Shown: positions 5,926 through 22,398 of the stretch, in pieces
Layout: every line of letters starts with the position of its first letter
Numbering within the stretch: position 1 is the stretch's first letter
From: Methanoculleus bourgensis MS2
GTDB lineage: Archaea; Halobacteriota; Methanomicrobia; Methanomicrobiales; Methanoculleaceae
Assembly (NCBI RefSeq): GCF_000304355.2
Contig: NC_018227.2
Location: 496,001-560,000, forward strand
Direction of reading: 5' to 3'
DNA: 64,000 nucleotides
Notes under the pieces: model-generated
Told to the model about the DNA's origin: nothing
What the model saw: the letters and a program-made list of their open reading frames with translations, nothing else
Databases searched by the model: none
Translations under genes and position numbers: made by a program

Positions 5926-5959
5926 TTTAAATATATTGCCTGATGATTGCCCGCCCGTA
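5926..5959 (+). promoter_or_regulatory. TATA box and leaderless start of orphan tupA
   Basis: A very AT-rich block (5885-5937) ends in TTTAAATATA at 5926-5935, centred 28 bp before ATG 5959. That distance places transcription initiation at or next to the start codon. No Shine-Dalgarno is seen, consistent with a leaderless message. Confidence 0.55.
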
Positions 5960-6888
5960 TGACTCCGAGATCATGGGTGCCCCTGGTGGGCATCATGGTA
6001 GTACTCTTGGCCGCATCTGTCGTCGCCGTCCCGGCACAGGAGGCAGCGAACCCGGACGTGCTCCGGATAGCAACGACAACAAGCCTCTACGATACCGGCC
6101 TGCTTGACGAACTTGAGATGATGTACGAGAACACGTCCGGCGTGGACGTGCAGATCACCGCACAGGGAACGGGCCAGGCGCTCGATACCGCACGACGTGG
6201 CGACGTCGACCTGGTGCTCGTCCACTCGCCGTCGCTTGAGCAGGAGTTCATCGATGAAGGCTACGGCATCAACGAGCGGTGCTTTGCCTACAACAACTTC
6301 CTCATCGTCGGGCCGGAGTCCGATCCGGCGGGAATCGCGAACATGAGCCCCGTGGAAGCATTCAAGGCGATCTACATCGCCGGGACGAACAACACAGAGG
6401 GCGTGGCCTTTGTCTCCCGCGGCGATGACTCGGGCACGCACAACCGGGAGCAGCAGATCTGGGCGGCAGCCGGCTACAACTACACAGAGGACATCCAGGA
6501 CTCCGGGCCCTGGTACCTGGAGACCGGGAGCGGCATGGGTGAGACCCTGACCGTCGCGAACCAGAAGGATGCCTACACGCTCTCAGACATCGGGACGTAC
6601 CTCGCCTTCAAGGACCAGCTCAACCTTGTAGAGCTCGTGACCGAGGGCGACGATCTCCTGAACCGCTACAGCGCCATTTCAGTCAACCCGGAGCAGGTGC
6701 CGGGCGTCAACATCAATGAGGCCACCAACTTCACCAACTGGATCACCTCCAACGAAACCAAGGAGTTCATCGGGAACTTCGGCGTCGAAGAGTACGGCCA
6801 GCCGCTCTTTGTGCCGCTCTACGCACCTGAGTGTACCGAACCGCCGTTCAACTGCACCTGCGCAGAGCCGGTGAACGCAACAGCGTGA
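5959..6888 (+). CDS. tupA: Tungstate-binding protein TupA, orphan copy
   Basis: 309 residues: a hydrophobic signal segment (VPLVGIMVVLLAASVVAV) followed by a TupA-type periplasmic binding fold. RIATTTSLYDTGLL near the mature N-terminus carries the TTTS oxyanion-binding motif typical of TupA; ARRGDVDLVLVHSP and VSRGDDSGTHNREQ are other family signatures. Unlike the two other copies, the signal has no lipobox cysteine. The C-terminus has three cysteines in a PEC-x4-FNCTC pattern shared with the copy at 7059. It has no permease of its own; a hairpin separates it from the complete tupABC operon. It may deliver tungstate to that transporter. Confidence 0.9.
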   Translation: MTPRSWVPLVGIMVVLLAASVVAVPAQEAANPDVLRIATTTSLYDTGLLDELEMMYENTSGVDVQITAQGTGQALDTARRGDVDLVLVHSPSLEQEFIDEGYGINERCFAYNNFLIVGPESDPAGIANMSPVEAFKAIYIAGTNNTEGVAFVSRGDDSGTHNREQQIWAAAGYNYTEDIQDSGPWYLETGSGMGETLTVANQKDAYTLSDIGTYLAFKDQLNLVELVTEGDDLLNRYSAISVNPEQVPGVNINEATNFTNWITSNETKEFIGNFGVEEYGQPLFVPLYAPECTEPPFNCTCAEPVNATA

Positions 6889-6910
6889 ACCCGGGAGTGC
6901 AAAAACCCTG

Positions 6911-6938
6911 CCGCCTGCCCCACCGTTCTGGCAGGCGG
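6911..6938 (+). terminator. Hairpin between the two tupA genes
   Basis: CCGCCTGCC (6911-6919) and GGCAGGCGG (6930-6938) form a perfect 9-bp stem with a 10-nt loop, 23 nt after the tupA stop. No T tract follows, so it may stabilise or process the 3' end rather than terminate transcription. Confidence 0.45.
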
Positions 6939-7020
6939 GGGGCACACCCCATCTTCAGGCCGGCGGGACCACTCTCTCCTCCCCTGTGGTTAACTGGACG
7001 CTGTTGACACCCCCGGCAGG

Positions 7021-7033
7021 ATAAATATTTATG
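7021..7033 (+). promoter_or_regulatory. TATA box of tupA2BC
   Basis: ATAAATATTTATG lies about 33 bp before the ATG at 7059, so the operon has its own promoter with little or no 5' leader. Confidence 0.5.
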
Positions 7034-7058: not shown

Positions 7059-8030
7059 ATGAAGACGAACGTAACTACTCTATCGGCCGGTGCTGTCCTG
7101 CTCCTTCTCGTCCTCGCCATCTTTGCGGGGTGCACGGGGACTGCGCCGGAGGGGAACGAGACGCCGGGCGCTACGACGACGGCCACACCCGCTGCCGGTG
7201 CGAACGTCATCCGGGTCGCCACCACGACAAGCCTTGAGAATACCGGACTGCTCGCGGAGCTCGAGCGGGTCTACGAGGGCGAGACCGGGGTTGACCTCCA
7301 GTTCATCGCCCAGGGGACGGGCCAGTCGCTCGATACCGCACGGCGCGGCGATGTGGACATGGTGCTCGTCCACGCCCCTGCGCTTGAAGAGCAGTTTGTA
7401 AATGACGGCTACGGGATCAACCCGCGCTGCATCGCCTACAACTACTTCATCATCGTCGGGCCGAAGTCCGACCCGGCGGGGATAGCGAACATGAGCCCCG
7501 TGGAAGCCTTCAAGAAGATCTACATCGCCGGGACGAACAACACGCCGGGCGTGGTCTTCGTCTCCCGGGGCGACAACTCAGGCACCCATAACCAGGAGAA
7601 GGCGCTCTGGAAGGAGGCGGGCTATGACTACGAGAAGGATATCCTGGACTCCGGGGCCTGGTACGTCGAGGCAGGCAAGGGCATGGGAGACACCCTGATC
7701 CTCACGAACGAGAAGAACGCCTACACGCTCTCTGATGAGGGTACCTATCTCTCGTTTAAGGACCGGCTGGCGCTGGTGCCGGTCATCGAGCAGGGTACGG
7801 AACTCATGAACCGTTACAGTGCGATCGCGGTCAACCCTGAAAAGTACCCGGATGTGAACGCGAAGGGGGCCGCGGACTTCATCAACTGGCTCATCTCCGA
7901 TGAAGGAAAGCAGCTCATCGGCGACTTTGGGAAGGCTGAGTTCGGGAAACCGCTCTTTGTGCCGCTCTACGCGCCCGAGTGCGCACAGCCGCCGTTCAAC
8001 TGCACCTGCGCAGAGCCGGTGACTGCATAA
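7059..8030 (+). CDS. tupA: Tungstate-binding lipoprotein TupA
   Basis: 323 residues. The signal segment ends in the lipobox IFAGC, so the mature protein is lipid-anchored on the outer face of the membrane, followed by a Thr/Ala/Pro/Gly-rich spacer. RVATTTSLENTGLL holds the TTTS tungstate-binding motif, and ARRGDVDMVLVHAP and VSRGDNSGTHNQE are conserved. The C-terminal PECAQPPFNCTC cysteine tail matches the orphan copy at 5959. It is the first gene of a tupA-tupB-tupC operon and would hand tungstate to the permease at 8092. Confidence 0.93.
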   Translation: MKTNVTTLSAGAVLLLLVLAIFAGCTGTAPEGNETPGATTTATPAAGANVIRVATTTSLENTGLLAELERVYEGETGVDLQFIAQGTGQSLDTARRGDVDMVLVHAPALEEQFVNDGYGINPRCIAYNYFIIVGPKSDPAGIANMSPVEAFKKIYIAGTNNTPGVVFVSRGDNSGTHNQEKALWKEAGYDYEKDILDSGAWYVEAGKGMGDTLILTNEKNAYTLSDEGTYLSFKDRLALVPVIEQGTELMNRYSAIAVNPEKYPDVNAKGAADFINWLISDEGKQLIGDFGKAEFGKPLFVPLYAPECAQPPFNCTCAEPVTA

Positions 8031-8091: not shown

Positions 8092-8787
8092 GTGGTGAAC
8101 GGGAGCCCGATCATTGAGGGGTTCATCGAGGCCATCTACCTCATCATCACCCTCAATCCGCAGGTGGTCGAGATCACCATCCGCTCGCTCTACATCTCCC
8201 TCACCGCCACCCTCTTTGCCTCTCTGATCGCCCTGCCGCTTGGGGCGCTCATTTACTTCTACGACTTCCGGGGGAAGCATGCGGTCGTCTCCACGCTGCA
8301 GACGCTCTATGCGCTCCCGACAGTCATCGTGGGCCTGATCATGTTCCTGCTCCTCTCAAACATCGGCCCCTTCGGGTTCCTCCACCTCCTCTACACTCCC
8401 GGCGGCATGATCGTCACCCAGACGGTTCTCATCATACCGCTCCTGATGGGGCTGACGGTCTCGGCACTCTCCGGGATCGACCGGGATAAACGCTACACGA
8501 TCACGGCGCTCGGTGCAAGCAGGTTCCAGACGGTCACGACCATCATCGCGGAATCCCGGTTCGCGGTCATGTCCGGCGTCCTTCTGGGGTTCGGGCGGGC
8601 GATCTCCGAGGTGGGGACGGTGATGATCGTCGGCGGCAACATCCGCGGCGCCACCCGGGTTCTCACCACCGCGATCGCGCTCAATACATCGATGGCAAAC
8701 TACTCCGTATCGATTGCACTCGGGATCATTCTGCTCGGGGTGGCGCTCGGGGTGAACATCGTTCTCTCCCTCGTGCAACGGCGGTGA
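8092..8787 (+). CDS. tupB: Tungstate ABC transporter permease TupB
   Basis: 231 residues with about five membrane segments and the binding-protein-dependent permease loop (EAA-type region around ITALGASRFQTVTTIIAESRF). It forms the tungstate channel that couples TupA to TupC. A strong AGGAGGGTGA precedes adjacent GTG codons at 8092 and 8095; 8092 is preferred. It is 61 bp after tupA2 and 4 bp before tupC, which implies one transcript. It is similar throughout to the TupB at 20610. Confidence 0.93.
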   Translation: MVNGSPIIEGFIEAIYLIITLNPQVVEITIRSLYISLTATLFASLIALPLGALIYFYDFRGKHAVVSTLQTLYALPTVIVGLIMFLLLSNIGPFGFLHLLYTPGGMIVTQTVLIIPLLMGLTVSALSGIDRDKRYTITALGASRFQTVTTIIAESRFAVMSGVLLGFGRAISEVGTVMIVGGNIRGATRVLTTAIALNTSMANYSVSIALGIILLGVALGVNIVLSLVQRR

Positions 8788-8791
8788 TATC

Positions 8792-9868
8792 ATGGCGATT
8801 GTTGAAGCACAGAAGATCAGGAAGGTATACGGCAGCTTAGAGGTCCTGCACGACGTCGACCTCTCGGTCCGGGAGGGGGAGATCCTCGGGCTCATCGGCC
8901 CGAGCGGCTCCGGGAAGAGCACACTCTTACGGATCCTCGACCTGATCGAACCGCCGAGCGGCGGCGAACTCTCGATCTTCGGTATCGATACAGTAGGGGA
9001 ACGCGGCCGCTGGCTCGACCTCCGCCGCCGGATGGGGATGCTCTTCCAGAGACCGATCGTCTTTAACGCATCGGTCTACGACAACATCGCGATGGGGCTG
9101 CGCTACCGGGGAGCCCCTCGTGATGAGATCGACCGGAGGGTGAAGGAGGCGCTTGAGGCAGTCGGGCTCTCCCGCTACATCAGGAGCAGGGCAACCGACC
9201 TCTCGGGCGGCGAGCAGCAGCGGGTGGCGTTATCGAGGGTGCTCGTGACGGACCCTGAGATCCTCTTCCTGGACGAACCGACGGCGAACCTGGACCCGGG
9301 CTCGACCGCTACCATCGAGGCGATCGTGACCCGTCTGAACCGTGAGAGGGGGATAACCGTCCTGATAAGCACCCACGATCTGGCGCAGGGGCAGAGGCTC
9401 GCCCACCGTGTCGCGGTGATGATCGAGGGGACGGTCGCCCAGGCGGGCTCGCCCCGCGAGATCTTCCATGAACCAAAAGACCAGAAGATCGCCAGGTTCG
9501 TGGGGGTCCAGAACATCATCCACGGCCGGGTCGTCTCCCGGGAGGGGGGGCTCACCACGGTGGAGATGAAGGAGAGACGTATCGTCTCAAAGACCCCGCC
9601 GCCGGCAGAGGAGGTGGCGGTGGTTATCAGGGGCGAGGATATCTCCCTGCACCGGAGGGAACCAGGCTACGAGGAGGCGGAGAACCTCTTTCCCGCCAGA
9701 ATTACCAGTGTCGAGCCCATGGCGCCGTTCGTGAACGTGACCGTGGACTGTGGGTGCGCTCTCGTCGCGCTGGTGACCGCGAGGAGGGCAGAGGCTCTCG
9801 GGCTTCGCGCAGGCATGGATGTCTGGGTCTCCCTCCCGGCGAGGGTGGTCCACCTGGTCCCCCGGTGA
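8792..9868 (+). CDS. tupC: Tungstate ABC transporter ATP-binding protein TupC
   Basis: 358 residues. Walker A GPSGSGKST is at about 36-44, the signature LSGGEQQ at about 137-143, Walker B ILFLDEP at about 157-163, and the switch histidine follows in ISTHDL. A C-terminal regulatory extension of about 120 residues (from VGVQNIIHG onward) resembles the TOBE-like oxyanion-binding region of Mod/Tup/Wtp ATPases and may sense intracellular tungstate. It powers import through TupB and ends the tupA2BC operon. Confidence 0.93.
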   Translation: MAIVEAQKIRKVYGSLEVLHDVDLSVREGEILGLIGPSGSGKSTLLRILDLIEPPSGGELSIFGIDTVGERGRWLDLRRRMGMLFQRPIVFNASVYDNIAMGLRYRGAPRDEIDRRVKEALEAVGLSRYIRSRATDLSGGEQQRVALSRVLVTDPEILFLDEPTANLDPGSTATIEAIVTRLNRERGITVLISTHDLAQGQRLAHRVAVMIEGTVAQAGSPREIFHEPKDQKIARFVGVQNIIHGRVVSREGGLTTVEMKERRIVSKTPPPAEEVAVVIRGEDISLHRREPGYEEAENLFPARITSVEPMAPFVNVTVDCGCALVALVTARRAEALGLRAGMDVWVSLPARVVHLVPR

Positions 9869-9935: not shown

Positions 9936-10913
9936 GTGAAACTGCACGGGGTTAGCGGGAGGGGCGCCGAAGATATCAGGATAACGGTCTTTTGTGCCGG
10001 AAGCCTGACCGGGCCCTTTGAGAAGGTGAAGGCGGCGTTTGAAGTGGAGCACCCCGGTGTCACTGTCGTCCTTGAGCCCGGCGGCAGCGTGGAGATCATC
10101 AGGAGGGTGACCGGAAGCGGGAGGCCTGCCGATCTGCTCGCATCAGCAGACTACGCCCTCATCCCGGAGATGATGGTGCCGGAGCACGCCGACTGGTATC
10201 TTACGTTCGCAAAGAACCGGATGGTGCTCACCTACACGAACGAGAGCAGGTATGCGGACGAGATCACCGCCGGGAACTGGTATGATGTTCTCGCTCGTGA
10301 CGGTGTCAGGTGGGGTTTCTCTGACCCGAACTCAGACCCCTGCGGCTACCGCACCCCGATGGTGATCCAGCTCGCCGAGGGCTACTACGGAAACGATCAG
10401 ATCTTTGAGGACCTCGTCGTGGCCCACAGCAACATCACCGTAACAGAGGAGAACGGCACCTCCACGGTTCATGCCACCGATTCGGGCTCCGACGATACCA
10501 CGCTCTTCATCAGGCTGAAGGCCGACGACCTCGTCAGGATGGTCAGGTCGGGCGACCTCGATTATGCCTGGGAGTACCGGAGCGTTGCCGTGCAGAACGA
10601 CCTACTCTTCATCGAACTCCCCGAAGAGATCGACCTCTCGGCGGTAGAGTTCGCTGAGAACTACGCGACCGTCCAGACCGAGGCGAAGAAGGGCGACGGT
10701 ACCACGCTCTATGCGGGCGCCCCGATCGTCTACGGCGTGACCGTCCCGAAGAACGCAGAGCACCCCGACCTTGGTCTTGCATTCGTGGAGATGCTGGTCG
10801 GTGCCACCGGTCAGGAGATCCTCACTGCCGACGGCCAGCCCCCGATCATGCCTGCGGGAGGCTACGGCAGCGTCCCTGCCGGGCTCGAGCCGCTCGTTGC
10901 GGTGAAAGCCTGA
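9936..10913 (+). CDS. wtpA: Tungstate/molybdate-binding protein WtpA, no evident signal peptide
   Basis: 325 residues from the GTG at 9936. The body is a clear WtpA/ModA-type binding protein: FCAGSLTGPFEKVKAAFE, LEPGGSVEIIRRV, RPADLLASADY, ADWYLTFAKNRMVLTYT and GFSDPNSDPCGYR follow the family in order. WtpA binds tungstate and molybdate for WtpBC. Oddly, nothing hydrophobic precedes the domain: the residues before it are VKLHGVSGRGAEDIRI, and the upstream extension to 9819 is also hydrophilic. A missed start, a frameshift or loss of the signal are all possible. Confidence 0.88.
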   Translation: MKLHGVSGRGAEDIRITVFCAGSLTGPFEKVKAAFEVEHPGVTVVLEPGGSVEIIRRVTGSGRPADLLASADYALIPEMMVPEHADWYLTFAKNRMVLTYTNESRYADEITAGNWYDVLARDGVRWGFSDPNSDPCGYRTPMVIQLAEGYYGNDQIFEDLVVAHSNITVTEENGTSTVHATDSGSDDTTLFIRLKADDLVRMVRSGDLDYAWEYRSVAVQNDLLFIELPEEIDLSAVEFAENYATVQTEAKKGDGTTLYAGAPIVYGVTVPKNAEHPDLGLAFVEMLVGATGQEILTADGQPPIMPAGGYGSVPAGLEPLVAVKA

Positions 10914-10980: not shown

Positions 10981-11841
10981 ATGAAGACCGAGACGCTCTC
11001 TGGCGATAAGGGAGGGTTATGGCGGGCGGAGCGCCCGGGATGGCACACGGACCGGTGCATCCTCTGGTTCTGCATCATGGGTGCGGTGATCGTCGGAATC
11101 ACGGTGCTTGCGCTTGCAAACATTGCGATTACAGAGCTCGCCGACCCTGCCCACCTCTTTGAGGTGGCAGCATCCTCGGAGGTGATCGGGTCCATCCTTC
11201 TCACGTTCTGCGCGGGGGCAAACGCTGTCCTCCTCCTGGTGATCTTCGGAACCCCCCTCGCCTACGTCCTCGCCCGCTCCCGCCCCTCCCGCTTCAAGGA
11301 AGTCGTGGAGAGCGTCGTCGATATCCCGCTCATCCTGCCCCATACGGTTGCGGGCCTGCTTGTCTACCTCCTCTTCATGCGCCGTGGGTGGCTTGGAGCG
11401 CCGCTTGCGGAGATCGGACTTGCATTTGAGGACGCCTACCCGGGCACGGTGGTTGCCATGCTCTTTGTCGCCTCCCCGTTCTTCATCAACAGCATGCGGG
11501 AGGGGTTTGAGAAGGTGCCCGTCCACCTGGAGAACGTCGCCCGCACGCTCGGTGCCGGCACGTTCACCACCTTCCGCACGGTCACGCTCCCCTTAAGCCT
11601 CCGGCACATGTTCAACGGAGCCATCCTCGCCTGGGGGAGGGCAATTGGGGAGTTTGCCGCTGTCATCATGATCGCCTACTACCCGTTCATCATATCGACG
11701 CTGATCTATTACTCGTTCACGACAGACGGCATCCACACAAGCCGGAGCATTGCGTTCGTGGTCATTGTGATCAGCTTCGCGGTCTTCTACCTCCTCCGGC
11801 GGATGACCCGGTACCTGGGGAGATACGATGATCGAGTTTGA
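10981..11841 (+). CDS. wtpB: Tungstate/molybdate ABC transporter permease WtpB
   Basis: 286 residues with an N-terminal cytoplasmic extension of about 28 residues and then about six membrane segments. The coupling-loop region (VPVHLENVARTLGAGTFTTF, then TLPLS) is typical of ModB/WtpB permeases. It would form the channel used by WtpA-delivered oxyanions. It overlaps the ATPase gene wtpC by 14 nt, implying coupled translation. ATG 10981 is used; a shorter start at a downstream ATG would remove part of the extension. Confidence 0.9.
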   Translation: MKTETLSGDKGGLWRAERPGWHTDRCILWFCIMGAVIVGITVLALANIAITELADPAHLFEVAASSEVIGSILLTFCAGANAVLLLVIFGTPLAYVLARSRPSRFKEVVESVVDIPLILPHTVAGLLVYLLFMRRGWLGAPLAEIGLAFEDAYPGTVVAMLFVASPFFINSMREGFEKVPVHLENVARTLGAGTFTTFRTVTLPLSLRHMFNGAILAWGRAIGEFAAVIMIAYYPFIISTLIYYSFTTDGIHTSRSIAFVVIVISFAVFYLLRRMTRYLGRYDDRV

Positions 11842-12889
11842 CCAGGTCTCGCTCGCACTCGGCTCGTTCCGCTTGAACAACGTCAGCCTGACGATCAACC
11901 GGGGTGACTACTACTTCATCGTCGGGCCGTCGGGCGCGGGGAAGACCGTGATTCTTGAGGCGATTGCGGGCCTCCACCGGCCCAGGCGGGGCCGGGTTCT
12001 CCTGCGGGGCGAGGAGGTCACCGCCCTGCCCCCCGAGAAGCGGAGGGTCGCCCTCGTCTACCAGGACTACTCGCTCTTTCCCCACATGAGCGTCATCGAT
12101 AACGTCGGCTACGGTCTTCGGATGCAGGGGATGGGGAGAGCGGATGCCAGGCATGAGGTTGTCGGTCTCCTCGCAGAGTTCGGGATAGCCCACCTCGCGG
12201 ACCGCTACCCGGGAACCCTCTCGGGCGGCGAGCAGCAGCGGGTCGCACTCGCACGTGCCGTCGCGGTAAAGCCCGACATCCTCCTCCTCGACGAGCCGCT
12301 CTCTGCCCTCGATCCGGTTACGCAGGAGAAGTTCATCCTCGACCTGCAGCGGCTCCACCGGGAGGACGACCTTACCATCGTCCAGGTGAGCCACGCCCGC
12401 AGGGAAGCGCACCTGCTTGCCACCCGGATGGCGGTGATCATCGACGGGAGCCTTGTGGAGGAAGGAGAGGCTGACGTTGTGCTGAACAGACCCCGGAGCC
12501 GGGAGGTCGCCTCGTTCGTCGGGATAGAGAACATCCTGGATGGAGCTGTGGTGAGAAACGAGGACGGGCACGCGACGGTAGATCTCGGCGGGCAGGTCTT
12601 CGAGGCGGTGACTGATGCGCCGGTGGGTGAGGAAGTCACCCTCTGCATCAGGTCTGATGATATCGTCCTCCGGGTTCCCGGCTCAACCCGTTCCAGTGCC
12701 CAAAACACGATGACCGGGACGATTACCCGGGTTGTTGAGAACGGGCCTGTCGCCGAGGTGAAGGTGGACTGCGGCGTAGAGTTGACTGCGGTCCTGACGC
12801 GGCGGTCGGTGCGTGACCTCTTGCTCGCCCCCGGAACGCCTGTAACCCTCTCCATCAAAGCGACGGCGGTCCATGTCATCCGCGGGTGA
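11828..12889 (+). CDS. wtpC: Tungstate/molybdate ABC transporter ATP-binding protein WtpC
   Basis: 353 residues. Walker A GPSGAGKT is at about 33-40, the Q-loop in VYQDYSLFPHM, the signature LSGGEQQ, Walker B ILLLDEP, and D-loop SALDP. The C-terminal third (from VGIENILDG) is a TOBE-like region that in ModC/WtpC proteins binds the oxyanion and inhibits transport. It overlaps wtpB by 14 nt and completes the wtpABC set. Confidence 0.93.
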   Translation: MIEFDQVSLALGSFRLNNVSLTINRGDYYFIVGPSGAGKTVILEAIAGLHRPRRGRVLLRGEEVTALPPEKRRVALVYQDYSLFPHMSVIDNVGYGLRMQGMGRADARHEVVGLLAEFGIAHLADRYPGTLSGGEQQRVALARAVAVKPDILLLDEPLSALDPVTQEKFILDLQRLHREDDLTIVQVSHARREAHLLATRMAVIIDGSLVEEGEADVVLNRPRSREVASFVGIENILDGAVVRNEDGHATVDLGGQVFEAVTDAPVGEEVTLCIRSDDIVLRVPGSTRSSAQNTMTGTITRVVENGPVAEVKVDCGVELTAVLTRRSVRDLLLAPGTPVTLSIKATAVHVIRG

Positions 12890-13206: not shown

Positions 13207-14355
13207 TCAGGACTGTGATTCCGGCCCGCTCCCCTGCCCTCTTCCTTTCTGCCACTGCAGGGCGTAGGCGAGGACCATCCCGATGATGAACGCGATGGTG
13301 AGGCCGATCACCAGCGTGAGGACGGCGATGGCTCCCGTGACCAGGTACGACTCGGTCTTTGCGCTGTGTTTCCCGAGTTCGATCGCCACGAAGACCAGGA
13401 GCGCGCCGAAGACCCCGAACGGTATGAGGGTCAGCACCTCCGGCGGGGCGAAGGCGATGGCGAAGATGAGGATGAAAATGCCGGCGATGATATTCGCCCC
13501 GCCGGTCCTTGCACCAAACCGGTACATGGCGGCAAGCCCCCCGGCGCCGTGGCACATGGGAAACCCTCCAAGCGGCGTGGAGATGAGGTTCATGGCGCCG
13601 ATGGTCCGGGAGAGCCGATCAGGGTCAACGCCTTTCTTCGGGAAGAGGTCGTAGGTGAGGAGCGATGTTGCGAGGATCGCGTTTGTCAGGGTGAGCGGTA
13701 TCTGCGGGAGTGCCAGATCCCAGGTGCCTGTTATGAAGTCTGCCGGTGCGGGGATGACGAGGCCCGGGATGGGTATCAGGCGGAACGGCGGCATCCCCTG
13801 CGTGGCGATGCCCGCGGCAAGCCCGATTCCGAGGACCATCAGGGCGGAGATGTCAGGCACCCGGGTGCGCTGCGACGCGATGAAGAAGATGACGATGATC
13901 GCGATCGCGAGCACCGCAAAGAGGACATCCGAGATGATATAGCCAAGCGATGTCTTCAGGAGGAGGAGCGCAAGCCCCGCCTGCACGCCCCGGACGACAC
14001 TCTTTGGGATCCGCTCCCCGATCCAGGTCATGCCGCCGACGAGCCCGAGCAGGAGGAAGAGCACGCCGACGATGATCCCGGACGCCACGATCTCGCCGCC
14101 GGAGAGTCCTTCGGCGATGACGATAGCGCCGATGGCCTTCATCGGCTCGATGGGGATCGGGAGGCGGTAGTAGAACCCGGCGATGATGTACCAGGCGGCG
14201 AGGAAGAGGAAGAAGTGGCTGACGTTCACGTCCGGGCAGACGATGGCAACCCCGAGCATGATGGGGAAGATGGTGCCGAAGTCGCCGACGGCTCCGGCGA
14301 TCTCCTCCAGGGTGATCCTGATGCCTCCTTCTCCGGTCCCGGTGTTCTCCGCCAT
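13207..14355 (-). CDS. MOT1-type molybdate/sulfate transporter
   Basis: 382 residues with about ten membrane segments. Family signatures are AGAVGDFGTIFPIMLG near the N-terminus and PLGGFPMCHGAGGLAAMYRFGARTGG in the middle, as in plant and algal MOT1 molybdate transporters of the sulfate-permease superfamily. A secondary, ion-coupled uptake of molybdate is inferred from the family and from the three Mo/W ABC transporters around it. ATG 14355 is chosen because AGAGAGGAGTC precedes it; the longer start at 14409 would run into the MscS gene. Confidence 0.85.
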   Translation of the reverse strand: MAENTGTGEGGIRITLEEIAGAVGDFGTIFPIMLGVAIVCPDVNVSHFFLFLAAWYIIAGFYYRLPIPIEPMKAIGAIVIAEGLSGGEIVASGIIVGVLFLLLGLVGGMTWIGERIPKSVVRGVQAGLALLLLKTSLGYIISDVLFAVLAIAIIVIFFIASQRTRVPDISALMVLGIGLAAGIATQGMPPFRLIPIPGLVIPAPADFITGTWDLALPQIPLTLTNAILATSLLTYDLFPKKGVDPDRLSRTIGAMNLISTPLGGFPMCHGAGGLAAMYRFGARTGGANIIAGIFILIFAIAFAPPEVLTLIPFGVFGALLVFVAIELGKHSAKTESYLVTGAIAVLTLVIGLTIAFIIGMVLAYALQWQKGRGQGSGPESQS

Positions 14356-14369
14356 GACTCCTCTCTGTC

Positions 14370-15323
14370 TTATGTTCCCGCTTCTTTTTGGAGGTTCTGG
14401 ATGGGGCATGTCGGGGTTTCTGGTACGGGTTCACCCTCCCATTCCTTCTTCTCAAGGAGATCCTCTGCCCTCAGCCGTTCGATGACGGTATCCAGGTACT
14501 CAGAGACGATCGCATCTTTCCTCGGGATCTGCCGGATCCAGACCCGCACCGTCAGCCTGACCCAATCCTCCTTGATCGACGAGATCTGCACCTTCGGCTC
14601 GAATAACGCAAGGCCGGGGCGGGGGAGGTCTGACGAGAGGCGTCCGATGTAGGGGAGGTCAAAGAGGCTCTGGACAGCGGACCGCTCGGCCGGTTCGACG
14701 TGGGGGAGGATCAGGGGATGGTCATGTGCGGCGCGAAGCGCTATCTCCTGCACCCGTTCGAGGTCCGCCGTGACCGGGACGGCGAGCGGGATCTGGACCT
14801 CAAGCAGCCCGGCCCGGGAGTAGTTGATGACCTTTGATGTTATGATACTCGAGTTCGGCGTGAGGACGAGGCCGCCGTCGAGGCCCTGGAGGATCGTCGT
14901 CGTGAGGGAGATATCCTGCACCTTGGAAAGCCCCGTCTCTGGTCTCCCGCTGACGATCACCCATTCCTCGAGCTGGACCGGGCGGTTGATCGTGATCAGG
15001 ACGCCTGCGATGACGTTCTGGATGATCTGGCGCGACGAGAACGCTACGACAATACCGAGGATACCAAGCGACGCCACAAAGGCTGTCAGGTCGAAGGCGA
15101 GGAGGTAGCGAGCGCTCGCGTAGATCCCGCCGATGGTGATGCCGTACTGCAGGACGGCCGCCGTCCACTTGGCTGTCCCGCGCGAGACCCGTCCCTCCAG
15201 CAACCGCCGGAGGAGCAGGTAGGCGAGGTTGCCGAGGAAGAGGAACCCGATAAAGGCGAAGAGGAACGCGAGAACCGCATCGAAGGATACCCCGGTGACG
15301 GGGACCGGAACGCTCTCCTGCAT
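14370..15323 (-). CDS. MscS-family mechanosensitive channel
   Basis: 317 residues: two to three N-terminal membrane helices, the pore-lining helix region (ASLGILGIVVAFSSRQIIQNVIAG), then the MscS beta domain (RPVQLEEWVIV and LTPNSSIITSKVINYSR) and a C-terminal alpha/beta domain. Such channels open on membrane tension and release solutes during osmotic downshift. It closely resembles the next gene, 39 bp upstream, so the pair arose by duplication. The region before ATG 15323 is pyrimidine-rich without a Shine-Dalgarno; TTAAT lies near 15350, suggesting a leaderless start. Confidence 0.9.
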   Translation of the reverse strand: MQESVPVPVTGVSFDAVLAFLFAFIGFLFLGNLAYLLLRRLLEGRVSRGTAKWTAAVLQYGITIGGIYASARYLLAFDLTAFVASLGILGIVVAFSSRQIIQNVIAGVLITINRPVQLEEWVIVSGRPETGLSKVQDISLTTTILQGLDGGLVLTPNSSIITSKVINYSRAGLLEVQIPLAVPVTADLERVQEIALRAAHDHPLILPHVEPAERSAVQSLFDLPYIGRLSSDLPRPGLALFEPKVQISSIKEDWVRLTVRVWIRQIPRKDAIVSEYLDTVIERLRAEDLLEKKEWEGEPVPETPTCPIQNLQKEAGT

Positions 15324-15362
15324 GTGGGAAAGAGTGAGAGGGAAGAGGATTAATCCCTTCCG

Positions 15363-16247
15363 TCAGGAGACCTCGGCCTTGACCGGGATATCCTCGGCCT
15401 GAAGACGCCTGAGGACCTCCTTCAGGTACCGGGAGGCGATCTCGTCCTTTCGGGGAATTTTGCTGATCCAGGCCCGCACTGTCAGTTTGATCCAGCCGTC
15501 GCTGACCGATGCGATGAGGACGGCGGGCTCGAAGTGCGCAAGGTCGGGGCGGTCGGCGCGGAGGCGCCTGATGTAGGGGAGGTCAAAGAGGCCTTGCGCC
15601 CCGGTTCGCCCGGCCGTGCTGATATGGGGGAGGATCTGGGGGTCGTCGAGTGCCACCGCGAGTGCGATCTCGCGCACCCGCGCAAGATCCGTGGCGGCCG
15701 GGACCGAGAGCAAGACCTGGATCTCTAAAAGCCCGCCCCGGGAGTAGTTGACGACCTTTGACGATATGATGCTTGAGTTCGGCATGAGGATGAGGCCGCC
15801 GTCGAGCCCCTGGAGGATCGTCGTCGTGAAGGAGATGTCGCGCACCTTACAGAGCCCTGTCGTCGGCCTCTCCCCGACAATTATCCACTCCTCAAGGTGG
15901 ACCGGGCGGTTGATCGTGATCAGGATGCCGGCAAGGACGTTCTGGATGATCTGGCTCGATGAGACGGCTACGACGATACCGAGGATACCGAGCGATGCGG
16001 CAACGGCCTTCAGGTCGAAGGCGAGGAGGTACCGGGCGCTCCCGTAGACCCCGGCAATGATGACCGCGTACTGCAGGATGGCCGCCGCCCACTTGGCAGT
16101 CCCGTGGGAGACCCGCCCGTCCAGCAACCGCCGGAGGAGCATGTATGCGAGGTTGCCGAGGAAGAGGAACGCGAGAAGGGCGAAGAGGAACACGAGGAAT
16201 GCGTCAAGTGACACCCCGCCGATGAGAGTTGGATCGCTCGCCTGCAT
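15363..16247 (-). CDS. MscS-family mechanosensitive channel, tandem paralogue
   Basis: 294 residues from the ATG at 16247, chosen because MQASDPTLIGGVSLDAFLVF aligns with the N-terminus of the neighbouring paralogue; the longer form from 16349 adds 34 hydrophilic residues. It has the same architecture: N-terminal helices, pore helix AASLGILGIVVAVSSSQIIQ, beta domain with RPVHLEEWIIV and LMPNSSIISSKVVNYSR. GGTTAACTC about 27 bp upstream may be its TATA box, giving a leaderless message. It releases solutes on hypo-osmotic shock by family inference. Confidence 0.9.
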   Translation of the reverse strand: MQASDPTLIGGVSLDAFLVFLFALLAFLFLGNLAYMLLRRLLDGRVSHGTAKWAAAILQYAVIIAGVYGSARYLLAFDLKAVAASLGILGIVVAVSSSQIIQNVLAGILITINRPVHLEEWIIVGERPTTGLCKVRDISFTTTILQGLDGGLILMPNSSIISSKVVNYSRGGLLEIQVLLSVPAATDLARVREIALAVALDDPQILPHISTAGRTGAQGLFDLPYIRRLRADRPDLAHFEPAVLIASVSDGWIKLTVRAWISKIPRKDEIASRYLKEVLRRLQAEDIPVKAEVS

Positions 16248-16395
16248 GCAGGAGAGAGGTGGGCGGGTGAGAGAGTTAACCCCTTCTCTACCGGTCCCGG
16301 ACCGGGGCATCGAATGTTCTTCATGCGCCCAGGGCTTGCCCCTTCGCAAGAGACCGTGTTCAGCCTCTTACGCGGCCTTGCATGGGTGTAATTGG

Positions 16396-17126: not shown

Positions 17127-17486
17127 CTACTCCTGCCCCTCGCCTGCCGCGTATGCCTGCAGCGCCTGGAGAATCCCTGTACCCAGGACCTCCTCTGCGC
17201 GCTCCCTGTAGCGCTCCGCCATGAGTTTGAGGAGTTGCGCCGTCCCTGCCGCCGTGGTCGATATACCGACCCGTTCTGCGCGGTGGATCAGCCCGTCCCG
17301 CTCCATCGACCCAAACCGGGGCAGGACATAGTAGTGGGGGATACTGAGGAATTCTGCGAGTTTTCGGGTTGTAGGGAAACGTATGGAGATGCCGTCAGGA
17401 GAAAAACTGATAGTTACCTGCCGGTCTTCTTCGAGGAGGATCCGGATAGCCGCATCGATTATCTCGTCATGCTCATGGATGGACAT
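17127..17486 (-). CDS. Small winged-helix-like protein
   Basis: 119 residues of unassigned family. The N-terminal part (HEHDEIIDAAIRILLEEDRQ) and a central stretch (TTRKLAEFLSIPHYYVLPRF, then GLIHRAERVGISTTAAGTAQ) read as a winged helix-turn-helix with a recognition helix near residues 40-60 and a wing near 65-80, as in small archaeal regulators. DNA binding is an inference. It is 49 bp downstream of the gene at 17536 and probably cotranscribed, with a palindrome upstream of both, so it could be a local regulator. Confidence 0.6.
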   Translation of the reverse strand: MSIHEHDEIIDAAIRILLEEDRQVTISFSPDGISIRFPTTRKLAEFLSIPHYYVLPRFGSMERDGLIHRAERVGISTTAAGTAQLLKLMAERYRERAEEVLGTGILQALQAYAAGEGQE

Positions 17487-17535: not shown

Positions 17536-17769
17536 TTACGCCGCCTCTTTCTTCATCTCGCCCCGCTCTTCTTCGGGCATCTCCTCGAGGTAGACGATCT
17601 CCGCCCCGACATCCTTTGCAATCGCTTCGAGTTCGACCTTCCTGAAGTGGACGCTCTCCACCTTCAGGTGCTTGTTCTCACCCTGTTCTTCGACGACGGC
17701 GACAACACGGAACCGGGGCTGTTTCACGCCGGTACCGATCTTCTGGCGCTCTCGTGCATAGATCTTCAT
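17536..17769 (-). CDS. Conserved small protein of unknown function (77 aa)
   Basis: 77 residues, mixed charged: MKIYARERQKIGTGVKQP, a predicted beta strand RFRVVAVVEE, KHLKVESVHFRKVELEAIAKDV, and an acidic then basic tail. I do not recognise the family. ATG 17769 is chosen over the in-frame ATG at 17787 because GGGAGGTGAT lies 6 nt before it. It is divergent from the Mo-storage-like gene at 17865 across a palindrome. Confidence 0.7.
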   Translation of the reverse strand: MKIYARERQKIGTGVKQPRFRVVAVVEEQGENKHLKVESVHFRKVELEAIAKDVGAEIVYLEEMPEEERGEMKKEAA

Positions 17770-17792
17770 CGTTTCATCACCTCCCAACCAAC

Positions 17793-17814
17793 TGGTATAG
17801 CTGCTGATATACCA
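17793..17814. promoter_or_regulatory. Palindrome in divergent promoter region
   Basis: TGGTATA (17793-17799) and TATACCA (17808-17814) are perfect inverted repeats with an 8-nt spacer, centre to centre 15 bp. It lies just upstream of the leftward gene at 17769, overlapping its likely TATA region, and about 50 bp before the rightward Mo-storage-like gene. The size fits a dimeric winged-helix operator. Its function is inferred. Confidence 0.5.
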
Positions 17815-17864: not shown

Positions 17865-18671
17865 ATGACTGAGCGAATCGAGTTAGGATCGAAGTTACGG
17901 GGCGAGAGCCTGGTCCGGCGGGGCCTGATGCGAGAGACCGCCAGAGTCCGGCAGATCAGGATCATGCCGGACCTGAACGTGGTCAAGATCGGCGGCCACG
18001 GTGTCATCGATTACGGGCGGAAGGTTATCTACCCGCTGGTCGAAGAGATCGGAGAACTCTCCCGGGACCACAAGATCCTGGTCGCCACCGGTGGTGGTGT
18101 CCGGGTGCGTCACATTCTCGACGTCGGGATCGACCTTGGCATGCCGACGGGGGTGCTTGCAGAACTGGCGGGCAAGGTCAGCGAGCAGAACGCGATCATG
18201 ATGTCCCTCCTCTTCTCGAAGTATAACGGTGTTCGGATCCACACCACCGACCTCTTAAACCTCCCCTCCCTCATATCGCTCGGCATGCTGCCGGTCGTGC
18301 AGGGCACCCCGCCCTACGGGCTCTACGAGCACCCGCCGAAACTCGGCAGCATCCCGCCGCACCGGACCGATACCGGGGCCTTCCTGATGGCCGAGGTCGT
18401 GGGTGCGAAGAACTGCATCCTCGGGAAGAACGTGGACGGTCTCTACACTGAAGACCCGTTTGCGAACCCCGACGCCGAGTTCATCGCAGATATCACAGCC
18501 GAAGAACTCCTGGAGATGAATCTAGAGGATATGGTGCTTGAACCGATGGCGGTCGAGCTGCTCCGGGACGCCGTTCACGTCAAAGAGATCAAGGTGGTGA
18601 ACGCTCATGTGCCCGGGAACATCACCAAGGCCATGAACGGTGAGCGTGTCGGCACCCTGATCCGGGCCTGA
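17865..18671 (+). CDS. Molybdenum/tungsten storage protein homologue (amino-acid-kinase fold)
   Basis: 268 residues. The sequence tracks the Azotobacter Mo-storage subunits MosA/MosB: LNVVKIGGHGVIDYG, ILVATGGGVRVRHILDVGIDLGMPTG, PPYGLYEHPPKLGSIPPHRTDTGAFLMAE, NVDGLYTEDP and VVNAHVPGNITKAMNGERVGTLIR. Those proteins form cage-like hexamers that use ATP to pack polyoxomolybdate or tungstate clusters. The UMP-kinase-like ATP fold alone could mean another kinase, but the RTDTGAF region and setting among tungstate transporters favour storage. A single gene is present, so a homo-oligomer is inferred. TTAATACT near 17822 may be its TATA box. Confidence 0.82.
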   Translation: MTERIELGSKLRGESLVRRGLMRETARVRQIRIMPDLNVVKIGGHGVIDYGRKVIYPLVEEIGELSRDHKILVATGGGVRVRHILDVGIDLGMPTGVLAELAGKVSEQNAIMMSLLFSKYNGVRIHTTDLLNLPSLISLGMLPVVQGTPPYGLYEHPPKLGSIPPHRTDTGAFLMAEVVGAKNCILGKNVDGLYTEDPFANPDAEFIADITAEELLEMNLEDMVLEPMAVELLRDAVHVKEIKVVNAHVPGNITKAMNGERVGTLIRA

Positions 18672-18756
18672 AAGCCCGGAGTCAACCCATTTTAATTAAT
18701 CCCGGAGATGTCTTCTTAAATCTTGTGTGCGGATCTGTAGAGGGGCGAACGATTAC

Positions 18757-19455
18757 ATGACCCTCTACCTTGGCATCGACGATACTGATACCCGCGAGTC
18801 CCGGGGGACCGGACGGCTCGCCCGCATGATTGCAGCAGAACTCGCCCGGTCATACGTGGTGACAGGGGTGACCCGGCACCAGCTCTTCATCCACCCGTCC
18901 ATCCCGTATACCTCGCAGAACAGTTGCGCGGTCATCCACATCCAGGATGCGGATAACGGGACAGGTGCCGACGTCTTCTCGGCCGCAAAGGAACTGATGC
19001 TCTCCGACTTCATCGAGGGGAGCGATCCCGGCATCTGCGTCGCCGCCGCCCGGGAGATCGGGAGTGACCTCCGCGGTTTCGGGTTCTCGGCGAAGAAGAG
19101 TGTCGTGACACAGGACCAGGCGCGGGCGCTTGCGAGGGCGGCAGGGGTCTGCCTCGAGGGGCTTGGCGGCACCGAAGACGGCGTGATCGGTGCGCTCGCC
19201 GGCATCGGCCTTGCCGCATCCGGAAACGACGGCCGGTTCGTCGTTAAGGGAGCGACCCGGAGCCTTCACGGCACCCAGACAGTCGCCGCAATCCTCGCCT
19301 CAGGCGTCGACCAGGTCATGACGCGCGATGGCACGGCGATCGACAAGGGTCTCGTGGCGCTCAAGAAGTTCCCAAAGCCCGCCTTCATCGGGGGGAAGGC
19401 GGTCCTCTTTGTCGAGCCCGACGGCGATCTATACCGCGATATCGTGGTCGGGTGA
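18757..19455 (+). CDS. GIDDTD-domain protein (TiaS-like N-terminal domain)
   Basis: 232 residues from ATG 18757. The N-terminal YLGIDDTDTRESRGTGRLAR matches the GIDDTD signature of the kinase-like domain of TiaS, the archaeal tRNA-Ile2 agmatinylcytidine synthetase. TiaS itself is much longer and ends in a zinc ribbon; both that and the ferredoxin-like middle are missing, so this is a stand-alone relative of unknown role. GAGGGG 12 nt upstream is a distant ribosome binding site. It sits between the storage-protein gene and a tupABC operon, so a role in metal-oxyanion use is possible but unproven. Confidence 0.75.
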   Translation: MTLYLGIDDTDTRESRGTGRLARMIAAELARSYVVTGVTRHQLFIHPSIPYTSQNSCAVIHIQDADNGTGADVFSAAKELMLSDFIEGSDPGICVAAAREIGSDLRGFGFSAKKSVVTQDQARALARAAGVCLEGLGGTEDGVIGALAGIGLAASGNDGRFVVKGATRSLHGTQTVAAILASGVDQVMTRDGTAIDKGLVALKKFPKPAFIGGKAVLFVEPDGDLYRDIVVG

Positions 19456-19582: not shown

Positions 19583-19611
19583 TCTGAAGTCCGATACTTG
19601 AATTGAACGTT

Positions 19612-20544
19612 ATGAGAATACGAACCCTTTTTGCCGTTGCGACCGTCATGGTCGCTCTCCTGCTGATCTGCGGGTGTACCGGGACGACACAGCCCGATAC
19701 TCCTGTCGATACTGAGAAGCAGCAGCTGCGTATCGCCACGACGACCAGTCTTTATGACACCAAACTTCTTGACCGCCTCAGCGCGATATTTGAAGAGGAG
19801 CACAACGCCGAGGTGCTGATTGTCTCTGCCGGAACCGGCAAGGCAATCGAGTACGGGCAGCGGGGCGACGTCGACGTCCTGATGGTGCATGACCGTGCGC
19901 GTGAAGATGTCTTCCTCGCTGACGGCTACGGGACCAACCGGCGTGTCTTTGCCTACAACTACTTCATCATCGTAGGACCGGAGTCCGACCCGGCAGCCAT
20001 CAAGGGCCTGCAGCCCGAAGAGGCGTTCACTGCCATCCGTGAGAAGGGAATGGCCGGTGATGCGGACGTAATCTTTGTCTCACGCGGCGACGCCTCGGGC
20101 ACACACTCCAAGGAGAAGGCTATCTGGAAGGGCGCCGGATTCAACTACTCCACTGACGTGCAGGGCTCCGGCGACTGGTACCAGGAGGCCGGGACGGGCA
20201 TGGGTGCGACCCTCTCGATGACCAACGAGAAGCAGGCCTACGCCCTCTCTGACATCGGCACCTACCTCGCTTACAAGGGCGACCTTGACCTCGTGACGCT
20301 CGTGGACGAGGGCGACATCCTGCTCAACGTCTACTGTGCCATGCAGATCAACCCTGAGAAGTACCCCGACATCAACAGCACCATCGCCAAGGACTGGATC
20401 AACTTCATGATCTCTGACGATGTGCAGAAGGAGATCGCCTCCTTTGGTGTCGACCAGTACGGCCAGCCGCTCTTCTACGCCGCCCAGGACGACTGGGAGA
20501 AGATCGGCGTAACCCTGGCTGAAGTGACGGACCCGGTTCTGTGA
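19612..20544 (+). CDS. tupA: Tungstate-binding lipoprotein TupA
   Basis: 310 residues. A signal segment ends in lipobox LICGC, followed by a short polar spacer and RIATTTSLYDTKLLD with the TTTS motif. YGQRGDVDVLMVHD, VSRGDASGTHSKEKA and SMTNEKQAYALSD follow the family. It lacks the C-terminal cysteine tail of the two copies near 6-8 kb and is clearly more divergent from them, so it is not a recent duplicate. ATG 19612 is preferred to TTG 19603 because it begins the signal peptide. It opens the second tupABC operon. Confidence 0.92.
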   Translation: MRIRTLFAVATVMVALLLICGCTGTTQPDTPVDTEKQQLRIATTTSLYDTKLLDRLSAIFEEEHNAEVLIVSAGTGKAIEYGQRGDVDVLMVHDRAREDVFLADGYGTNRRVFAYNYFIIVGPESDPAAIKGLQPEEAFTAIREKGMAGDADVIFVSRGDASGTHSKEKAIWKGAGFNYSTDVQGSGDWYQEAGTGMGATLSMTNEKQAYALSDIGTYLAYKGDLDLVTLVDEGDILLNVYCAMQINPEKYPDINSTIAKDWINFMISDDVQKEIASFGVDQYGQPLFYAAQDDWEKIGVTLAEVTDPVL

Positions 20545-20609
20545 GCCGGTCTCTTCACTCCAATCCCTACCCATTTTTCCCCCTGGCAAACCACAATTAG
20601 GAGCAGAGC

Positions 20610-21311
20610 ATGTACGAGATCATCGAGGGATTTCTGGAGGCGGTCGAGCTCATCATCACGCTTGACCCCGACGTGATGGCTATCTCTGCAAGGAGCGTCA
20701 TCATCTCATTCACCGCAACCATCTTCGCCACCATGATCGCCGTCCCGCTCGGCGCCGCGATCAACTTCGGCACGTTCCGCGGGAAAAAGAGCCTCATCAA
20801 TCTGATCCAGACCCTCTACGCTCTGCCGACGGTCATCGTCGGACTCCTCATATTCCTGCTGATATCCCGTGTTGGGCCGTTTGGGTTTATGCGGCTGCTC
20901 TTCACCCCGACCGCGATGATCATCGCACAGACGGTGCTTGTCCTGCCGATCATGACCGGGCTCACGATCTCTGCGCTCTCGGGGGTCGATCCGGTCATCA
21001 GGGATACCCTCCACTCGCTTGGGGCGACACGTCTCCAGTTTCTCGTAAACATCATGAAGGAAGCGCGGTTTGCGATCCTTGCGACCGTCGCGGTCGGGTT
21101 TGGGCGGGCGATATCAGAGGTCGGGGCGGCGATCCTGGTCGGCGGCAACATCATGGCGTCGTCCTTCATGAGTTCGACCCGTGTGCTGACAACGGCGATA
21201 TCCCTTGAGACATCGATGGGAAATATCCCTAAGTCCATCGCGCTCGGTATCATCCTTCTCGTGATCGCTCTCGGCGTCAATCTCATCATAACCACGATAC
21301 AGCACCGGTGA
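20610..21311 (+). CDS. tupB: Tungstate ABC transporter permease TupB
   Basis: 233 residues, about five membrane segments, with the permease coupling region LHSLGATRLQFLVNIMKEARF. It aligns end to end with the TupB at 8092, including YALPTVIVGLLIFLLISRVGPFGF. TAGGAG lies 6 nt upstream of ATG 20610. It is 65 bp after tupA and 4 bp before tupC. It forms the membrane channel of this tungstate importer. Confidence 0.93.
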   Translation: MYEIIEGFLEAVELIITLDPDVMAISARSVIISFTATIFATMIAVPLGAAINFGTFRGKKSLINLIQTLYALPTVIVGLLIFLLISRVGPFGFMRLLFTPTAMIIAQTVLVLPIMTGLTISALSGVDPVIRDTLHSLGATRLQFLVNIMKEARFAILATVAVGFGRAISEVGAAILVGGNIMASSFMSSTRVLTTAISLETSMGNIPKSIALGIILLVIALGVNLIITTIQHR

Positions 21312-21315
21312 TCCC

Positions 21316-22398
21316 ATGATTGAACTTATCGACGTCTCAAAGAGGTTTGGTGATACGGTGGTGCTTCGCGGCGTCACCGCGCGGGTCGAGCGTGGAGAGA
21401 TCTTTGCGGTCATCGGGCCGAGCGGGTCCGGGAAGTCGACCCTGCTGCGTCTCATCAACCTTCTCGACAGACCGGGGGGAGGAAAGATCCGGGTCAACGG
21501 TGTCGACATCCACGCCGAGAAGGAGCAGCGTCTCCGGATCCGCCGGATGATGGGGATGGTCTTCCAGAAACCCGCCGCTTTCAACTCAACCGTCTACGAA
21601 AACATTGCAGTCGGTCTCAGGTTCCGGGGGACGGGTGAGGGTGTGATCCGCGAGAAGGTCAGGGACGCCCTCGATGTGGTCGGGCTTGCCGGCTACGAGG
21701 AGCGGAGAGCGCGGACGCTCTCGGGCGGGGAGATGCAGCGGGTGGCTCTTGCGCGGGCGATGGTGATCGAGCCGGAGGTCCTGCTGATGGACGAGCCGAC
21801 CGCGAACCTCGACCCGGTCTCGGTCGGGATGATCGAGGAACTGGTGCTCCGCATCAACCGCGACCTCGGCACGACGATCGTGATCTCGACCCATGATATG
21901 TACCAGGGGCAGCGGCTCGCCCACCGGATCGGGGTGCTGATGGATGGTGCGTTTGCGCAGGTAGGGACGCCCCGGGAGGTCTTCACCGTGCCTGCGAGCC
22001 GGGAGGTTGCGCGGTTCGTCGGTATCGAGAATATCATCGAAGGGGTCGTTGTGGCCGCCGGGAACGGCAAATCCGCCATCGATGTCGGCGGCATCCCCAT
22101 CCGGGCGGTATCGCCGCTTCCCCCGGGGGAGGATGTCTGCCTCTGCATCAGGTCCGAGGACCTGCGGATCGTGCAACCGGATGGGGGAGGTGTCCCCGGT
22201 GGGAACAGCCTCCCCGGCACCGTGACGTCTATTGCGCCGCGCGGCCCGTTCAGCAGGGTGACGGTCGACTGCGGGTTTGTGCTCTCGTCCATCCTCTCGT
22301 GGAAGGCGGTGGACAGTCTGGGTATCAGGGAAGGCAGCCGGGTCGTTGTTTCGTTTGCGCCTGAGGCGGTCCACGTCGTCGGGGCGGCGCAGGGCTGA
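21316..22398 (+). CDS. tupC: Tungstate ABC transporter ATP-binding protein TupC
   Basis: 360 residues. Walker A GPSGSGKST near residues 34-42, signature LSGGEMQ, Walker B VLLMDEP, D-loop ANLDP and H-loop ISTHDM are all intact. The C-terminal part from VGIENIIEG is a TOBE-like regulatory region as in the TupC at 8792. It energises tungstate import through the TupB encoded just upstream. Confidence 0.93.
   Translation: MIELIDVSKRFGDTVVLRGVTARVERGEIFAVIGPSGSGKSTLLRLINLLDRPGGGKIRVNGVDIHAEKEQRLRIRRMMGMVFQKPAAFNSTVYENIAVGLRFRGTGEGVIREKVRDALDVVGLAGYEERRARTLSGGEMQRVALARAMVIEPEVLLMDEPTANLDPVSVGMIEELVLRINRDLGTTIVISTHDMYQGQRLAHRIGVLMDGAFAQVGTPREVFTVPASREVARFVGIENIIEGVVVAAGNGKSAIDVGGIPIRAVSPLPPGEDVCLCIRSEDLRIVQPDGGGVPGGNSLPGTVTSIAPRGPFSRVTVDCGFVLSSILSWKAVDSLGIREGSRVVVSFAPEAVHVVGAAQG

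What the first reader, a model, noticed from the sequence alone, without database searches (positions are those of the whole stretch)
5959..22398. Concentrated molybdenum/tungsten island with four uptake systems and a storage protein
Directly visible: orphan tupA, two full tupABC operons, one wtpABC set, a MOT1-type permease and a Mo/W-storage homologue within about 16 kb. Known: methanogens need W or Mo for formylmethanofuran and formate dehydrogenases. Having two Tup and one Wtp systems side by side suggests division of labour by affinity, metal or condition. The interleaved winged-helix, GIDDTD and small unknown proteins may belong to the same system.
Basis: partly seen in the sequence, partly recalled or inferred. 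Interest (0 to 1): 0.85.

Follow-up and report, generated by a model that had tools for sequence, protein, structure and literature searches.

The report
Archaeal tungsten/molybdenum storage-and-uptake island
A methane-producing archaeon keeps its tungstate-uptake genes beside a gene for a metal-storage protein, and comparing many genomes shows that this storage gene almost always comes with two uncharacterised partners: a tiny protein and a DNA-binding switch whose likely DNA target is found next to them even in distantly related Asgard archaea.

Summary
The island is real and syntenic across Methanoculleus. All three TupA genes of the 2.79-Mb genome lie in it. One correction: the "full" wtpABC is damaged here. 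The wtpA copy lost its lipoprotein signal (tupC-to-mature-WtpA gap about 100 bp, versus 250-300 bp in same-genus relatives), and Wtp genes erode repeatedly in the genus.

The storage gene (best solved match: Azotobacter Mo storage protein, E 4e-64) comes with a 77-aa protein matching no Pfam or solved-structure family. That protein was found in 93 of 93 storage-positive genomes of the order and in only 1 of 57 storage-negative ones. A 119-aa winged-helix protein, also in no Pfam family, accompanies it in 89 of 93.

A palindrome, TATACCAATTGGTATA, lies upstream of the 77-aa gene in 24 of 25 genera that have the winged-helix gene and 0 of 8 sampled groups without it. It recurs upstream of tup genes, and in Asgard archaea that carry the same cassette.

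Best reading: a dedicated W/Mo storage module (MoSto-like pump, obligate small partner, own regulator) embedded among tungstate transporters. Metal specificity, DNA binding and the small protein's role are inferred, not shown.

The parts
5947..6888 (+). tupA1: TupA-like binding protein, tandem paralogue of tupA2; secretion signal but no lipobox
   Evidence: PF12849 E 4e-39; NF041772 211 bits (below cut-off 400); signal/tail
7059..8030 (+). tupA2: TupA-like lipoprotein
   Evidence: PDB tungstate-binding protein 3lr1 E 7e-57, TTTS and SRGDnSGTH blocks aligned
8092..8787 (+). tupB2 permease
   Evidence: NF038017 above cut-off, NF041773 E 2e-47
8792..9868 (+). tupC2 ATPase
9936..10913 (+). wtpA lacking its lipoprotein signal peptide (GTG start at 9936 is a guess)
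   Evidence: TIGR03730 378 bits over cut-off; no signal in any frame and shortened upstream gap; highest mean dN of 13 species
10981..11841 (+). wtpB permease
   Evidence: NF040839 E 1e-70
11828..12889 (+). wtpC ATPase
   Evidence: NF040840 E 4e-107
13207..14409 (-). MOT1-type molybdate/oxyanion permease
   Evidence: PF16983 E 3.7e-54
17127..17486 (-). wH: 119-aa winged-helix protein, candidate regulator of the storage module
   Evidence: no Pfam family; AF2 pLDDT 90.7; Foldseek best DtxR/IdeR E 2e-3; co-occurrence and operator tests
17536..17769 (-). small83: 77-aa protein (ORF to 17787 with upstream TTG), obligate companion of the storage gene
   Evidence: 93/93 and 49/49 storage genomes; no Pfam or PDB match; AF2 pLDDT 65, no fold match
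17784..17799 (.). operator-like palindrome 1, CCAACCAACTGGTATA (right half perfect)
   Evidence: genus-weighted matrix score 15.6
17796..17811 (.). operator-like palindrome 2, overlapping, 12 bp on, TATAGCTGCTGATATA (weak)
   Evidence: score 10.4; same tandem spacing as in relatives and Asgard
17865..18671 (+). MosAB/MoSto-like storage protein (amino-acid-kinase fold)
   Evidence: PDB MoSto beta 2ogx E 4e-64, alpha E 2e-50, next family UMP kinase E 5e-11
18727..19455 (+). GIDDTD protein, distant TiaS-TCKD / methanogenesis-marker-11 relative; membership in the module uncertain
   Evidence: TIGR03280 54 bits (cut-off 256), PF22641 21.6 bits (cut-off 27); present in 33 of 78 longer loci
19603..20544 (+). 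tupA3 lipoprotein
   Evidence: NF041772 180 bits
20610..21311 (+). tupB3 permease
   Evidence: conserved next to tupA3 in the genus
21316..22398 (+). tupC3 ATPase
   Evidence: conserved next to tupB3 in the genus

Best explanation
The island is the tungstate/molybdate supply centre of a Methanoculleus archaeon. Tup transporters and a MOT1-type permease bring oxyanion in. A MoSto-like protein (17865-18671) stores it, presumably as polyoxometalate using ATP. A 77-aa protein (small83) works with the storage protein, most likely as a subunit or accessory for loading, capping or release. A winged-helix protein (wH) binds tandem TATACCAATTGGTATA operators between small83-wH and the storage gene, regulates both, and in some genera also regulates tup. 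Shown here: gene identities by homology, co-occurrence, synteny, operator conservation and its dependence on wH. Inferred: DNA binding by wH, response to W/Mo, metal storage, and the physical partnership of small83. Wtp is probably impaired in this strain.
For: (1) Storage protein: MoSto is the nearest solved family by more than 50 orders of magnitude. (2) small83 is in 93/93 storage-positive and 1/57 storage-negative genomes of the order (Fisher 8e-41, not corrected for relatedness), and in 49/49 of the phylum sample. It still co-occurs where the genes lie apart: G006 on different contigs, G036, G103, G019, G115 about 10-15 kb apart. Where the storage gene is duplicated (genus g8), each copy has its own small83. 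(3) wH is in 89/93, always on the same strand as small83, within 250 bp in 83 of 89 loci. (4) With a leave-one-genus-out matrix the operator is found upstream of small83 in 24/25 genera with wH and 0/8 groups without. (5) Four loci not used in training (three Asgard, one Methanocellales) score 22-28, in tandem 12 bp apart in three of them. (6) The same operator occurs 16 times upstream of tup genes in 11 loci against 0.9 expected from the background rate, and upstream of tupA in G093, which has wH but no storage gene or small83. (7) In genomes G015 and G033 the only perfect genome-wide site is the one at small83/storage.
Against: The MosA His block (PPYHHHEF) is not conserved; archaeal proteins have PPYGLYE, so the stored form may differ. 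The operator in this window is degenerate. Genome-wide, near-matches to the operator are no commoner than the reversed control. Genus g25 has wH but no recognisable operator. Linked genes can be lost together, which inflates the co-occurrence statistics. No tup operator was found in Methanoculleus itself. No expression or binding data.
Confidence: 0.7

Rival explanations
1. small83, not wH, is the DNA-binding or sensing protein at the operator, and wH has another target.
For: small83 is basic, with conserved R6, R8, K10, H41, R43, K44, and is nearest to the operator.
Against: Genomes with small83 but no wH (G002, G008, G019, G115, Methanocella-type G166, G175, G184) lack the operator, while G093 has wH and a tup operator without small83. 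wH has a confident winged-helix model.
Confidence: 0.1
2. The kinase-fold protein is not a metal store but a small-molecule kinase of unknown substrate that merely sits beside W/Mo transporters.
For: UMP-kinase superfamily; bacterial MosB is annotated 'uridine kinase'; the MosA His block is missing.
Against: Far closer to MoSto than to UMP kinase; linked to tup or mot1 in most loci and in Asgard; shares a putative operator with tup.
Confidence: 0.15
3. The island is ordinary redundancy: several homologous oxyanion transporters acquired by transfer, without a shared regulatory or storage system.
For: Transporter content varies strongly between relatives, with Wtp and Mod losses.
Against: The invariant core is storage gene, small83 and wH with one operator, kept while the transporters around it come and go.
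Confidence: 0.12
4. wH is a metal-cation (DtxR/MntR-like) repressor, so the module responds to Fe or Mn rather than W/Mo.
For: Best fold matches are DtxR/IdeR (E 2e-3); weak sequence profile hits to DtxR-like proteins.
Against: The fold match has rmsd about 8 A and TM about 0.5; the sites found lie at storage and tup genes.
Confidence: 0.12

Closest known systems
Azotobacter vinelandii molybdenum storage protein MosAB (PDB 2OGX, 4F6T)
   Same: About 40% identical amino-acid-kinase fold over full length; ATP-site-like motifs KIGG, TGxG, RTDTG and NVDG aligned.
   Different: One archaeal gene (two tandem copies in genus g8) instead of mosA plus mosB; MosA His block absent; companion small83 and wH not found beside Azospirillum mosAB. 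A 2019 paper states that MoSto had no known homologues (PMC6448029).
TupABC tungstate transporter
   Same: All three TupA keep the TTTS and SRGDxSGTH blocks aligned with solved tungstate-binding proteins (TupA2 aligned; TupA1 and TupA3 read from the sequence).
   Different: Scores below the NCBIfam equivalog cut-off; TupA1/A2 and their nearer homologues carry a cysteine-containing C-terminal tail.
WtpABC tungstate/molybdate transporter
   Same: WtpA mature domain over the TIGR03730 cut-off; 337-bit match to solved M. acetivorans protein 3k6u.
   Different: No export signal here; the conserved FHAGSL is FCAGSL.
DtxR/IdeR/MntR metal-dependent repressors
   Same: Winged helix with extra helices; weak fold similarity.
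   Different: No Pfam or NCBIfam family is met; operator TATACCAATTGGTATA is unlike theirs (from memory).
ModE and TunR oxyanion regulators (from memory); Tub tungsten storage protein (PMC11980592, listed)
   Same: Regulate or store Mo/W.
   Different: wH is one small domain with no molbindin-like part; the storage protein here is of the kinase fold (Tub being TOBE-type is from memory).

Membership tests
MoSto (molybdenum storage protein) | Full-length homology closer to MoSto than to UMP kinases | tested here: met
   E 4e-64 against MosB, 2e-50 against MosA, 5e-11 against UMP kinase
MoSto (molybdenum storage protein) | ATP-site motifs of the fold | tested here: met
   KIGG, TGxGxR, RTDTG, NVDGLYT aligned with MosA/MosB
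MoSto (molybdenum storage protein) | MosA histidines that bind the polyoxomolybdate cluster | tested here: inconclusive
   His block PPYHHHEF of Azospirillum MosA is PPYGLYE in archaea, but MosB lacks it too; which residues are the cluster ligands was not checked
MoSto (molybdenum storage protein) | Binds Mo/W clusters with ATP | not testable with these tools
   needs biochemistry
TupA | NCBIfam equivalog cut-off NF041772 (400 bits) | tested here: not met
   180-212 bits; so called TupA-like, not TupA equivalogs
TupA | Ligand blocks TTTS and SRGDxSGTH | tested here: met
   alignment for TupA2; reading of all three sequences
WtpABC | WtpA family model TIGR03730 | tested here: met
   378 bits, cut-off 243
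WtpABC | Exported, membrane-anchored binding protein | tested here: not met
   no signal or lipobox in any frame; intact relatives have one
MOT1 permease | PF16983 above cut-off | tested here: met
   182 bits, cut-off 30
DtxR repressors | Sequence family membership | tested here: not met
   no family above cut-off for wH
DtxR repressors | Metal-binding residues | not tested
   residues not mapped
ModE | Winged helix plus molbindin domains | tested here: not met
   119 aa, no such domain found

The most novel reading that the evidence does not exclude
small83 founds a new family of obligate MoSto accessory proteins, and wH founds a new family of W/Mo-responsive regulators with the operator TATACCAATTGGTATA. 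Together with the storage gene they form a self-regulated storage cassette that has moved between archaeal phyla (methanogens and Asgard).
Probability: 0.5. Interest if true: 0.8.

Novelty: new variant of a known kind. Interest (0 to 1): 0.66.

Why it matters
Tungsten and molybdenum are needed for the first step of CO2-based methane formation, and their supply affects biogas digesters. How archaea store and sense them is little known. This gives a storage protein, an unstudied obligate partner, a regulator and an exact DNA site, all directly testable, in a system shared by methanogens and Asgard archaea. No paper in the searched library mentions both a molybdenum storage protein and methanogens.

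Tried and rejected
Genome-wide regulon by pattern: 12-mer with 1 mismatch (40 sites, control 61) and 16-mer with 2 mismatches (no excess over the reversed control), so no wider regulon is claimed. Fold search of small83: low-confidence model (pLDDT 65) and no meaningful match. A frameshifted wtpA signal was looked for in three frames and not found. Seeing the Azotobacter MosA alignment in PDB output failed because only MosB rows were printed, so Azospirillum MosA/MosB were used. TunR literature is not in the open library. Trace-element papers on digesters mention no W/Mo transport or storage proteins in the passages read. A considered reading that TupA1 works with WtpBC was dropped for lack of evidence.

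Full report
WHAT IS THERE. The window is bases 496001-560000 of a 2,789,774-base single-contig genome. Genus mates are Methanoculleus by record title; from memory the size suggests M. bourgensis MS2, which was not tested. All three TupA of the genome lie in this 16-kb stretch. A ModABC operon lies elsewhere (1.798 Mb), and a second ModA homologue at 126 kb.

CORRECTION ON WTP. WtpA's mature domain matches solved archaeal proteins over its whole length, but no signal peptide or lipobox precedes it in any frame. Every relative whose wtpA 5' end is intact has one. The distance from tupC to the mature domain is about 100 bp here and 250-300 bp in the genus, so a deletion is the simplest cause. wtpA of this species has the highest mean dN of 13 species (0.131, median 0.073), although other genes of this lineage are also somewhat fast. 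Across the genus wtpA or wtpBC is missing in several species: L031 and L045 have wtpA without wtpBC, L035 and L043 the reverse, L048 a wtpA remnant, L032 and L033 none. Wtp is therefore eroding, and a three-transporter division of labour is unlikely to be general.

SYNTENY. The order tup - (wtp) - SemiSWEET - mot1 - [modABC or mscS] - wH - small83 - storage - GIDDTD - tupABC recurs in the genus with insertions and losses, and the parts are shuffled in other families. Within the shuffling, one core stays: wH and small83 on one strand, usually divergent from the storage gene (86 of 104 storage copies have a divergent small83 within 400 bp).

CO-OCCURRENCE. In 150 genomes of the order, storage 93, small83 94, wH 91. 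All 93 storage genomes have small83; of 57 without storage only one (62% complete) has it. In 295 genomes of the phylum the figures are 49, 52 and 45, again with all storage genomes having small83. P values ignore relatedness and block loss. Two facts go beyond linkage: small83 still accompanies storage where the two are far apart (G006 on different contigs, G036, G103, G019, G115), and duplicated storage genes each have their own small83 (L057, L058, L061, L062).

OPERATOR. The small83/storage intergenic region holds TACCAnnTGGTA, often as two palindromes overlapping at 12-bp steps. A genus-weighted matrix built without the tested genus finds it upstream of small83 in 24 of 25 genera with wH and 0 of 8 groups without wH. 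At one mismatch the counts are 69 of 95 genomes with wH and 0 of 10 without (Fisher 9e-6). Asgard loci (Sifarchaeum L206, Borrarchaeota L207 and L209) and a Methanocellales locus (L204) carry storage, small83, wH and tupABC; their small83 upstream regions, not used to build the matrix, score 22-28, L207 with a perfect TATACCAATTGGTATA. The L204 genome may be the same as or close to G188, which was in the training set, so the Asgard loci are the cleaner test. The operator is also enriched upstream of tup genes in 11 loci of other genera (16 sites, 0.9 expected; the background is mostly coding, so this is approximate) but in no Methanoculleus locus. G093 has wH and a tupA operator without storage or small83. 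In the window the operator is a weaker version (scores 15.6 and 10.4).

PROTEINS. wH: confident winged-helix model (pLDDT 90.7), best fold matches DtxR/IdeR but weak, no curated family. Columns PTTR..A, PHYY..P, ME and ERVG..T are almost invariant. small83: 77 aa, invariant R6, R8, A24, H41, E48, strand-strand-helix-strand in a low-confidence model, no fold match. Storage protein: archaeal sequences form one clade apart from Azospirillum MosA/MosB, with the Asgard sequences inside the methanogen set (SH-aLRT 94, quick tree), suggesting lateral transfer. The MosA histidine block is not conserved.

MECHANISM. Shown: gene identities by homology, co-occurrence, synteny, operator conservation and its dependence on wH. 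Inferred: wH binds the operator and answers to W/Mo; the storage protein stores W/Mo; small83 assists it. Because small83 persists with storage where wH is absent (G002, G008, G019, G115, G166, G175, G184), it is better read as a partner of storage than of wH. In Methanoculleus the operator abuts the small83 start, which would suit autorepression (inference).

NOVELTY. MoSto, Tup, Wtp and MOT1 are known. The obligate companion, the regulator family and the operator were not found in Pfam, in the solved structures or in the papers searched. Subscription papers were not searchable.

Noticed in passing
window 6820-6888 and 7970-8030: TupA1 and TupA2 end in a cysteine-containing tail (APEC..PPFNCTCAEP); many homologues in the genus and some in other families keep it or a variant, TupA3 does not. 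Possible disulfide or metal site.
   Followed up: partly
L163:4816-4831 (genome 1,797,816): An operator-like site GATACCTATTGGTATC (score 14.5) lies about 580 bp upstream of the genome's separate modABC operon, with a small ORF of ribbon-helix-helix look between them.
   Followed up: partly
window 14370-16349: Two tandem MscS-like channel genes sit where some relatives have modABC; L031 has both, so modABC was probably lost here from the island.
   Followed up: partly
window 18727-19455: A GIDDTD protein distantly related to the TiaS kinase domain and methanogenesis marker 11 follows the storage gene by 55 bp on the same strand.
   Followed up: partly
window 12896-13150: SemiSWEET-like PQ-loop protein (84 aa) conserved beside the transporters in Methanoculleus.
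   Followed up: no
window 847-1719 and 3385-4422: Two HEAT-like repeat proteins beside hisD; the first holds repeated QHDLLAGPEG motifs. Often found next to the island in the genus.
   Followed up: no
L125, L123, L124, L126, L149: Genus g22 has two tandem small83 genes with one storage gene.
   Followed up: no
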